Shown: piece by piece, positions 330 to 6,031 of the stretch | How the letters are laid out: each line of letters begins with the position of its first letter | Numbering within the stretch: position 1 is the stretch's first letter | Assembly: GCA_002728855.1 (NCBI GenBank) | Contig: PBWA01000007.1 | Coordinates: forward strand, 86,792 to 130,182 | Direction of reading: 5' to 3' | Length of the DNA: 43,391 bases | From: Flavobacteriaceae bacterium | Lineage (GTDB): Bacteria > Bacteroidota > Bacteroidia > Flavobacteriales > Flavobacteriaceae | Notes under the pieces: generated by a model | What the model saw: the letters and a program-made list of their open reading frames with translations, nothing else | Database searches by the model: none | Told to the model about the DNA's origin: nothing | Program-made: the position numbers and the translations under genes

Positions 330-662
330 TTAATAGAGGAGATGTTTCTTAGAATTATTTCTCCAACCAGCCTGAGATCGATACTCAACAAAATAGATTT
401 TCAAATCGGCTTGAGATGAGTAATCAACAAAATAGATCTTTTTATCTGCTTGAGATGAATAATCAACAAAAAACCATAATCCTTCATTTCCTTTTACCTG
501 TGATGAATAATCAACCTTGTAAACTTTAAGATCTGCTTGAGATGAATAATCAACAACATATACCTTAACATCAGCTTGAGATGAATAATCTACCGAATAC
601 ATTTTTTGAGAATATGCGATACTTGAGCAAAGAAAAAAAATTAATAATATTTTTTTCATCAT
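330..662 (-). CDS. Small exported repeat protein, DUF6150 (Septknot)-like
   Basis: This 110-residue protein has a signal peptide (basic MMKK, hydrophobic core, likely cleavage after residue 18 or 19 near AYSQ). The rest is six imperfect copies of a unit starting VDYSSQAD, with a usual period of 13 residues (one copy has 16). Each copy alternates a Y-x-S-Q turn with a V/I-Y strand, and the last copy is degenerate (VEYRSQAGW). The pattern matches what I recall as DUF6150, a small Bacteroidota family of unknown function. Translation could start at either of two adjacent ATGs. It lies downstream of the ATP synthase operon on the same strand but is separated by a probable weak terminator, so it is probably its own unit. 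Location (periplasm or outside) is inferred from the signal peptide. Confidence 0.8.
   Translation of the reverse strand: MMKKILLIFFLCSSIAYSQKMYSVDYSSQADVKVYVVDYSSQADLKVYKVDYSSQVKGNEGLWFFVDYSSQADKKIYFVDYSSQADLKIYFVEYRSQAGWRNNSKKHLLY
364..600 (-). repeat. Tandem repeats encoding VDYSSQAD units
   Basis: At the DNA level the plus strand shows recurring copies of CTTGAGATGAATAATC with a few substitutions, normally 39 bases apart. They encode the six protein repeats. Several copies are identical over 16 bases, so the array may have expanded recently or be kept alike by recombination. Confidence 0.8.
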
Positions 663-4261: not shown

Positions 4262-4453
4262 TTATAGAACAAACATTGCTGCAAAACCAATACCTTCTAC
4301 AAGAGCAGCAATAATTAACATAGCTGTCTGTATCTTACCATAGGCTTCTGGTTGTCTACCTATAGCCTCCATAGCTCCTCTACCGATGCCTCCTAATCCG
4401 ATACCTACACCTATTACTATTAAACCTCCTCCTACAATTGCTGGAATTTCCAT
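4262..4453 (-). CDS. atpE: F1Fo ATP synthase subunit c
   Basis: Proteolipid that forms the rotor ring. The 63 residues make two transmembrane helices joined by the polar loop with the conserved RQPEA (33-37). The ion-binding carboxylate is Glu53 in ALVEGIGFA. The neighbouring residue is Gly, not Ser/Thr, and helix 1 lacks the glutamine of Na+-type rings, so a proton-driven ring is the better reading (inference from motif). The glycine-rich helix 1 is typical. ATG start at 4453. Confidence 0.98.
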   Translation of the reverse strand: MEIPAIVGGGLIVIGVGIGLGGIGRGAMEAIGRQPEAYGKIQTAMLIIAALVEGIGFAAMFVL

Positions 4454-4496: not shown

Positions 4497-5576
4497 TTAA
4501 TGATCATGTTCTTCTTCTACAGCAAAACCAAAATATAATGCTGATAATATTGTAAAAATATATGCTTGCAAAAGTGCAACTAATATTTCAATTATAGAAA
4601 TAAAAAATGCTAATGCAAATGACAAACTTGATCCCAGCCAATTTCTAAAAATAAATATCATCGAAATCAATGTCATCATTGTAATATGCCCCGCTGTAAT
4701 ATTGGCATACAATCTAATCATTAGAGTAAACGGTTTAATAAAAACCCCCAATAATTCTATAGGGGCCATAATTAGTTTCATGTACAGGGGCATTCCCGGC
4801 ATCCAAAAGATATGTTTCCAATAATAAGTTGTACCACTTACAGTTGTAATTATAAAAGTTATCAAAGCTAAGCAAAATGTAACGGCTATATTTCCCGTAA
4901 CATTTATTCCTAATGGTGTAAGGCCAATCATATTGCAAAACCAAATAAAAAAGAAAAGAGTTAATAAAAAACTCATATATCTTTTATAATGTTTTTGTCC
5001 AATATTGGGTATGGCAATTTCATCTCTAATATATATGACTATTGGCTCAAAAAATCTTCCAATACCTTTTGCGACTAATCCATTTTTTGAGTAGGATCTT
5101 GCTAAGCTTTTGAAAAGTATAAACATTAAAAAAGAAACAAGAATCATACTAACTACACTTTTTGTAATTGAAAAATCTAATGGAGCAATATTAGTAGGAT
5201 ATCCTTTTTCATCATAATTAATAGTTCCATTAATGTCAGTTAAATAAATCTTACCATGATATAGTCTATAAAATTTTTCACCTACTTTAGCTAAAGACTC
5301 TCCATGACTAAATTTAGATGATGAAAAAATTTTAATGCCATCGTCCCAGATAATAACAGGGAGTGGTATTCCTATATAAACTTTTCCCCCATTTACCTCA
5401 TCTGTATATGATAATAAACTAAAATCGTGAGAATCTTTAACATGATGTAAAATATACTCTGTTAACTCTTCTTTTAAATTTTTAGATTTAGTCTCGTCAC
5501 CCTTAGCAAATAAATCTATGGAATTAGTTAGAAGAATAAGAAGGCTGAAAAGAAGTAAAACCTTTGTTTTTATAAT
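4497..5576 (-). CDS. atpB: F1Fo ATP synthase subunit a, full length with a non-canonical start
   Basis: Stator channel subunit. The first Met in frame is at 5147, but that would remove the first 143 residues. The frame stays open upstream to a TAA at 5577-5579, giving 359 residues and the N-terminal extension typical of Bacteroidota: a signal-peptide-like stretch (KVLLLFSLLILL, ending near FAKG), then an exported segment with IPLPVIIWDDG and ITKSVVSM leading into the first transmembrane helix. The essential arginine is in FTLMIRLYANI. No ATG, GTG or TTG occurs in the extension before the signal peptide. The only plausible starts are ATT (5576) or ATA (5573). A promoter-like TAAATTTG ends 25 bases upstream of the ATT. 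An ATG lost to a sequencing error cannot be excluded. Confidence 0.9.
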   Translation of the reverse strand: MIKTKVLLLFSLLILLTNSIDLFAKGDETKSKNLKEELTEYILHHVKDSHDFSLLSYTDEVNGGKVYIGIPLPVIIWDDGIKIFSSSKFSHGESLAKVGEKFYRLYHGKIYLTDINGTINYDEKGYPTNIAPLDFSITKSVVSMILVSFLMFILFKSLARSYSKNGLVAKGIGRFFEPIVIYIRDEIAIPNIGQKHYKRYMSFLLTLFFFIWFCNMIGLTPLGINVTGNIAVTFCLALITFIITTVSGTTYYWKHIFWMPGMPLYMKLIMAPIELLGVFIKPFTLMIRLYANITAGHITMMTLISMIFIFRNWLGSSLSFALAFFISIIEILVALLQAYIFTILSALYFGFAVEEEHDH

Positions 5577-5601
5577 TTAAAATTTAAAAGTTTGTCGCCT
5601 G

Positions 5602-5609
5602 CAAATTTA
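5602..5609 (-). promoter_or_regulatory. Bacteroidota -7 element upstream of atpB
   Basis: TAAATTTG on the minus strand is an exact match to the Bacteroidota sigma-A -7 consensus TAnnTTTG. It lies in the 77-base gap between the DUF6168 gene and the full-length atpB frame and would start transcription about 20 bases before the ATT. I see no good TTTG -33 box at 19-20 bases. It may be an internal promoter for atpBEFHAG. Confidence 0.5.
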
Positions 5610-5653: not shown

Positions 5654-6031
5654 TTAAAAATTTTTTAATAACATCATTAAGCTATAGGTCTCAAAAATTA
5701 AAGAAACTGAATAAGGGATAAAAAAGGAAAAGAACTCTAAATTTTCAATTATGCCATCTGATGAAAGGAAGGGGTGAAAAAAAATAAAAAAAACAGAAAA
5801 CTTTACTAAACTTCCTAATAAAAATATCCATGCTATATAAATACTTCTTTTTTTTAAATTGTAATGGAGTATGAAATATATGATAGCTGTAATAAATGTA
5901 TTGAAAAGATATGCCTGAATTATCATATCATCCCATAGATTGTTCGCTGTAAATTTCAATAAAGAAATGTGAATTAAAAAAGTAATGGTTAGAGTAAAAA
6001 TTAATCCTAAGCAAAAACTTTTAATCTCCAT
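5654..6031 (-). CDS. DUF6168-like four-helix membrane protein of the atp operon
   Basis: The 125-residue protein is almost entirely hydrophobic, with four predicted transmembrane helices (about residues 6-28, 38-58, 65-88 and 98-120). I recognise it by position and pattern as the DUF6168 protein found between AtpZ and subunit a in Flavobacteriia. A role like AtpI (c-ring assembly or ion supply) is inferred from its place in the operon, not shown by motifs. ATG start at 6031, six bases after the atpZ stop. Confidence 0.75.
   Translation of the reverse strand: MEIKSFCLGLIFTLTITFLIHISLLKFTANNLWDDMIIQAYLFNTFITAIIYFILHYNLKKRSIYIAWIFLLGSLVKFSVFFIFFHPFLSSDGIIENLEFFSFFIPYSVSLIFETYSLMMLLKNF

What the first reader, a model, noticed from the sequence alone, without database searches (positions are those of the whole stretch)
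4497..5576. atpB appears to lack a canonical start codon
The full-length frame of subunit a runs from a TAA at 5577 through a good signal peptide, yet contains no ATG, GTG or TTG before it. ATT ATA are its first codons. ATT is a known rare start (infC, pcnB in E. coli), where it serves self-regulation. Using it for a subunit of ATP synthase could lower subunit a output. Starting at the internal Met (5147) would remove the signal peptide and the exported extension.
Basis: partly seen in the sequence, partly recalled or inferred. Interest (0 to 1): 0.55.

Follow-up and report, generated by a model that had tools for sequence, protein, structure and literature searches.

The report
ATP synthase gene without normal start
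In two related marine bacteria the gene for a core part of the ATP-making enzyme has lost every normal start signal and most likely begins at a rare, weak one, which may keep its output low; this is unusual for such a gene but of a kind already known.

Summary
The 359-codon frame of atpB (F-ATPase subunit a; PF00119) is closed by TAA just upstream, begins ATT ATA AAA ACA AAG, and has no ATG, GTG or TTG before the internal ATG at 5147. It is not a sequencing error: the only other species held of the genus (88% identical) reads ATC ATA AAA ACA AAG, also without a canonical start near the N-terminus. Codons 1-143 are under purifying selection (dN/dS about 0.13), so the internal Met is not the sole start. 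No reading frame from elsewhere crosses the site. Of 157 distinct atpB loci classified, 147 have an ATG, 8 only GTG/TTG, and 2, these two species, none. Relatives put ATG or TTG in the aligned column. Best reading: initiation on the AUU/AUC-AUA pair. Positional homology favours AUU/AUC; local start context and the inferred AUA start of infC in this order favour AUA. Reduced output or IF3 control is inference. A new member of a known kind: near-cognate start codons.

The parts
5574..5576 (-). ATT, first codon of the open frame; candidate start 1 (ATC in the sister species)
   Evidence: aligned with ATG/TTG of relatives
5571..5573 (-). ATA, second codon; candidate start 2, conserved in the sister species; would give M-K-T-K
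   Evidence: context 6.4 bits against 3.7 for ATT
5577..5579 (-). In-frame TAA directly upstream
5602..5609 (-). TAAATTTG, matches the TAnnTTTG -7 promoter consensus of Bacteroidota (consensus recalled)
   Evidence: such a box lies 5-70 nt upstream of the candidate start in 148 of 157 loci; shuffled mean 9.0
5502..5576 (-). Signal-peptide-like N-terminus (judged by eye)
   Evidence: translation; no predictor was run
5148..5576 (-). N-terminal region, codons 1-143, lost if the internal ATG were the start
   Evidence: dN 0.113, dS 0.867 between the two species
5145..5147 (-). First ATG in frame, codon 144
4530..5153 (-). ATP-synt_A domain PF00119, residues 142-349
4262..4453 (-). Next ORF, 63 aa, subunit c-like (atpE, by eye)
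   Evidence: no profile run

Best explanation
atpB of this genus is translated full length from a non-canonical start at the AUU/AUC-AUA pair at its 5' end. Shown: no canonical start in either species, purifying selection on the N-terminal region, no frame that could enter by frameshift, IF3 present, and an ATG or TTG in relatives at the aligned place. Inferred: fMet-tRNA pairs at two positions with AUA or AUU/AUC on a short A/U-rich leader made from the promoter box 25 nt upstream; IF3 discriminates against the mismatch so initiation is slow; the signal peptide is then removed, so the mature protein is unaffected. The cost is bearable, and perhaps selected, because one subunit a is needed per complex against many c subunits (stoichiometry recalled).
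For: Two of 2 genomes of the genus; dN/dS; no ATG/GTG/TTG-started frame in either other phase spans the start; initiation region among the more conserved: 2 mismatches in 27 nt, equalled or beaten by 5 of 44 ATG-started pairs; context score of ATA at or above 93% and 90% of 124 ATG starts, of ATT/ATC at or above 69% and 75%; IF3 gene present with both domains; infC itself lacks ATG/GTG/TTG in 30 of 31 sampled loci of the order and has ATA at the inferred start in 26 of 31, also in the sister species. Experimental precedents read in passages: AUA and AUU starts in S. aureus at about 10% of AUG in poor medium (PMC13009471); ATG > ATA > ATT in Listeria (PMC13068326); IF3 repression of a GTC start in Streptomyces (PMC5472188).
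Against: No protein or ribosome data. Both genomes are incomplete assemblies (83% and 67%). Choice between AUU/AUC and AUA is unresolved: positional homology and context disagree. A start at a further near-cognate codon inside the signal peptide is not excluded. Start-like context also occurs by chance: 4% of 8606 interior ATH codons score as high as ATT and 0.3% as high as ATA.
Confidence: 0.85

Rival explanations
1. Translation starts only at the internal ATG (codon 144), giving a 216-aa subunit a without signal peptide or N-terminal domain.
For: The PF00119 match begins at residue 142, so the membrane domain would be nearly whole; gene callers limited to ATG/GTG/TTG would choose this start.
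Against: Codons 1-143 show dN 0.113 against dS 0.867 between species, with 50 of 82 changes at third positions; the whole stretch stays open in a genome of 31% GC; its conserved motif is shared across the family.
Confidence: 0.04
2. Assembly or sequencing error, or a single-strain mutation, removed an ATG.
For: The window comes from an incomplete multi-contig assembly.
Against: The sister species, a separate assembly at 88% identity, has the same lack with a different third base.
Confidence: 0.03
3. The start is another near-cognate codon further into the signal peptide (for example AAG at codon 5 or a later ATH codon).
For: Only two species bound the site; the signal peptide varies elsewhere.
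Against: Codons 2-5 are identical between the species and changes begin at codon 6; a start at AAG would leave a short N-region before the hydrophobic core. Context scores of later codons were not obtained: one search stopped with an error before that step and one search scored only codons 1 and 2.
Confidence: 0.06
4. Entry by programmed frameshift or readthrough from an upstream canonical start, as in prfB.
For: This genome does use the prfB frameshift.
Against: In both species every ATG/GTG/TTG-started frame nearby ends before codon 1 or begins well inside the gene.
Confidence: 0.02

Closest known systems
infC (IF3) with AUU start in E. coli, ATC in Streptomyces (PMC5472188, passages), AUA in S. 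aureus (PMC13009471, passages)
   Same: No canonical start; near-cognate AUH codon; conserved between species
   Different: infC regulates itself through IF3; atpB has no such direct loop. Here IF3 dependence is untested
AUA/AUU starts of ccpN, citZ and cvfC1 in S. aureus (PMC13009471, passages)
   Same: Near-cognate start on a metabolic or other non-infC gene; lower output measured there
   Different: For infC, cvfC1 and ccpN an extended Shine-Dalgarno motif is predicted; none is seen by eye here, as usual for Bacteroidota (PMC6847099, passages)
sigR GTC start in Streptomyces (PMC5472188, passages)
   Same: Non-canonical start that sets a protein ratio, as proposed here
   Different: Regulatory protein, experimentally shown; here a structural enzyme subunit, sequence evidence only

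Membership tests
Genes with near-cognate (AUU/AUC/AUA) start codons | No ATG/GTG/TTG at the 5' end of the translated frame | tested here: met
   in 2 of 2 genomes of the genus
Genes with near-cognate (AUU/AUC/AUA) start codons | Region upstream of the first canonical codon is translated | tested here: met
   dN/dS about 0.13 for codons 1-143, 0.10 for codons 26-143; evidence by selection, not by protein data
Genes with near-cognate (AUU/AUC/AUA) start codons | Near-cognate codon at the place of the ancestral start | tested here: inconclusive
   13-sequence alignment puts ATT/ATC with ATG/TTG; 5-sequence alignment puts a gap there
Genes with near-cognate (AUU/AUC/AUA) start codons | Initiation shown by peptide, profiling or reporter | not testable with these tools
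   No such data
IF3-repressed start codons | IF3 gene present | tested here: met
IF3-repressed start codons | Output rises when IF3 activity falls | not testable with these tools
   Needs an experiment
F-type ATP synthase subunit a (atpB) | ATP-synt_A domain over cut-off | tested here: met
   183.4 bits, cut-off 33.9

The most novel reading that the evidence does not exclude
The amount of ATP synthase subunit a in this genus is set by IF3 through a fixed AUA or AUU/AUC start, in an order where infC itself keeps a conserved AUA start, so that ATP synthase assembly and initiation-factor supply are coupled.
Probability: 0.15. Interest if true: 0.65.

Novelty: new member of a known kind. Interest (0 to 1): 0.4.

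Why it matters
Core, conserved genes are expected to keep strong starts: AUG starts are under purifying selection, most of all in conserved, highly expressed genes (PMC5622118, abstract). A near-cognate start fixed in a core ATP synthase gene of two species is an exception that a cheap reporter test can probe, and gene callers restricted to ATG/GTG/TTG would truncate the protein by 143 residues. It also bears on how start codons are chosen in Bacteroidota, which initiate without Shine-Dalgarno sequences.

Tried and rejected
Sequencing error: rejected by the sister species. Internal start: rejected by dN/dS. Frameshift entry: no crossing frame. Loss of IF3: rejected, infC is present. A second independent case in relatives: L047 has ATT where relatives have ATG, but a TTG lies 3 codons upstream and TTG or GTG stands there in several relatives, so it is explained. 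RNA structure at the start: unremarkable, z -0.52. Sigma-70-type promoter scan: no more sites than shuffles, and not the promoter type of this phylum. The unfiltered ortholog screen was full of antisense frames and was repeated with a filter. Structure prediction was not run.

Literature: the ten paper searches listed no paper on a non-canonical atpB start in Bacteroidota nor on an AUA start of infC there; the library is partial and the listings were read by title and abstract start only. The 64-codon study of E. coli is known here only by citation; it is not held.

Full report
What is there. The minus-strand frame 4497-5576 encodes F-ATPase subunit a (PF00119) between an unassigned 125-aa membrane-like ORF (5654-6031; no Pfam or NCBIfam match) and a subunit c-like ORF (4262-4453, by eye). 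It is closed by TAA at 5577-5579, reads ATT ATA AAA ACA AAG, and has no ATG, GTG or TTG until ATG at 5145-5147. The window lies in a 1.62-Mb, 50-contig assembly, 83% complete, close to records named Flavobacteriaceae.

Relatives. The genus holds two species in this collection. The other reads TAA ATC ATA AAA ACA AAG (L002). A 21-base pattern over the site occurs once in each of these two genomes and in none of four neighbours. For the survey, 172 matching loci came, chosen by similarity or by me, not at random; 13 exact duplicates and 2 at contig edges were dropped; of 157 left, 147 have an in-frame ATG before the conserved region, 8 only GTG/TTG, 2 none. The class 'ATG' does not prove that this ATG is the start: L114, for example, counts as ATG but has a TTG at codon 2 where its close relatives L032 and L033 have only that TTG. 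In the atpB tree (49 of the 60 best-scoring loci; 2 without the anchoring motif and 9 duplicates dropped) the genus groups with the TTG clade (L032, L033, L114, L115) and an ATG clade (L004, L034, L112, L113), support 91/91, drawn as an open fork.

Which codon. A 13-sequence alignment places ATT/ATC in the column of ATG (L034) and TTG (L032, L033, L114), followed by [A/G]TA AAA [T/A]CA; a 5-sequence alignment instead places a gap there. Against this, a start-context profile from 124 unambiguous ATG starts of this genome scores ATA 6.38 and ATT 3.71 bits; in the sister species ATA 6.13 and ATC 4.42; the inferred infC ATA scores 5.99. In 31 infC loci the conserved block is preceded by ATA in 26, ATC in 2, CTG in 2 and ATG in 1 (read by eye); the sister species also has ATA. 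I put AUA and AUU/AUC at about even odds.

Is it translated. Between the two species codons 1-143 give dN 0.113, dS 0.867; codons 26-143 0.103 and 1.031; codons 1-25 0.164 and 0.413; codons 144-359 0.025 and 0.747. The N-terminal part is thus a selected coding sequence, though less constrained than the membrane domain; the first 25 codons alone are weaker evidence, as expected of a signal peptide.

How rare. The genome screen examined 293 putative genes in 427 kb. First canonical codons were ATG 231, TTG 46, GTG 15. Four genes had a long coding-like stretch upstream; atpB is the strongest, and the others are prfB, an antisense frame and a tamB-like gene at a contig edge, the last unresolved. 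The screen misses genes whose first canonical codon lies close to a non-canonical start. The comparison of 57 ortholog pairs agrees.

Mechanism. A TAnnTTTG box ends 25 nt before ATT in both species; such a box stands 5-70 nt before the candidate start in 148 of 157 loci against 9.0 expected from shuffles, so atpB in this family probably has its own promoter and a short leader. F. johnsoniae initiates without Shine-Dalgarno pairing, helped by A at -3 (PMC6847099, passages); ATA here has A at -3, ATT has T. With a near-cognate codon, measured precedents give about a tenth of AUG output in S. aureus in poor medium (PMC13009471, passages). Lower output here, IF3 control and any benefit for subunit stoichiometry are inferences.

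Verdict. Real, present in both known species of the genus, absent elsewhere in the sample, and of a known kind. The most surprising part is the gene: a core ATP synthase subunit.

Noticed in passing
L111:891-1448 and L135-L164; L185: infC in this order lacks ATG/GTG/TTG in 30 of 31 loci and has ATA at the inferred start in 26 of 31, also in the sister species: a conserved AUA start, parallel to AUU in E. coli.
   Followed up: partly
L175:3380-3580: prfB with a typical programmed frameshift site (AGGAGG...CTTTGAC; motif recalled) in this genome, though Bacteroidota mRNAs otherwise do without Shine-Dalgarno pairing.
   Followed up: partly
window 330-662 (-): 110-aa secreted-looking protein of repeated YSSQAD-like units, PF19647 (DUF6150), just downstream of the gamma-subunit-like ORF.
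   Followed up: no
window 5654-6031 (-): 125-aa membrane-like ORF between an AtpI-like ORF (below Pfam cut-off) and atpB, without any Pfam or NCBIfam match.
   Followed up: no
L032, L033, L114 (sister clade): atpB appears to start at TTG directly before ATA AAA TCA, so weak starts may be common in this wider group.
   Followed up: partly
L181:10-3408: tamB-like ORF with 47 weakly coding-like codons before its first canonical start, at a contig edge; unresolved.
   Followed up: no
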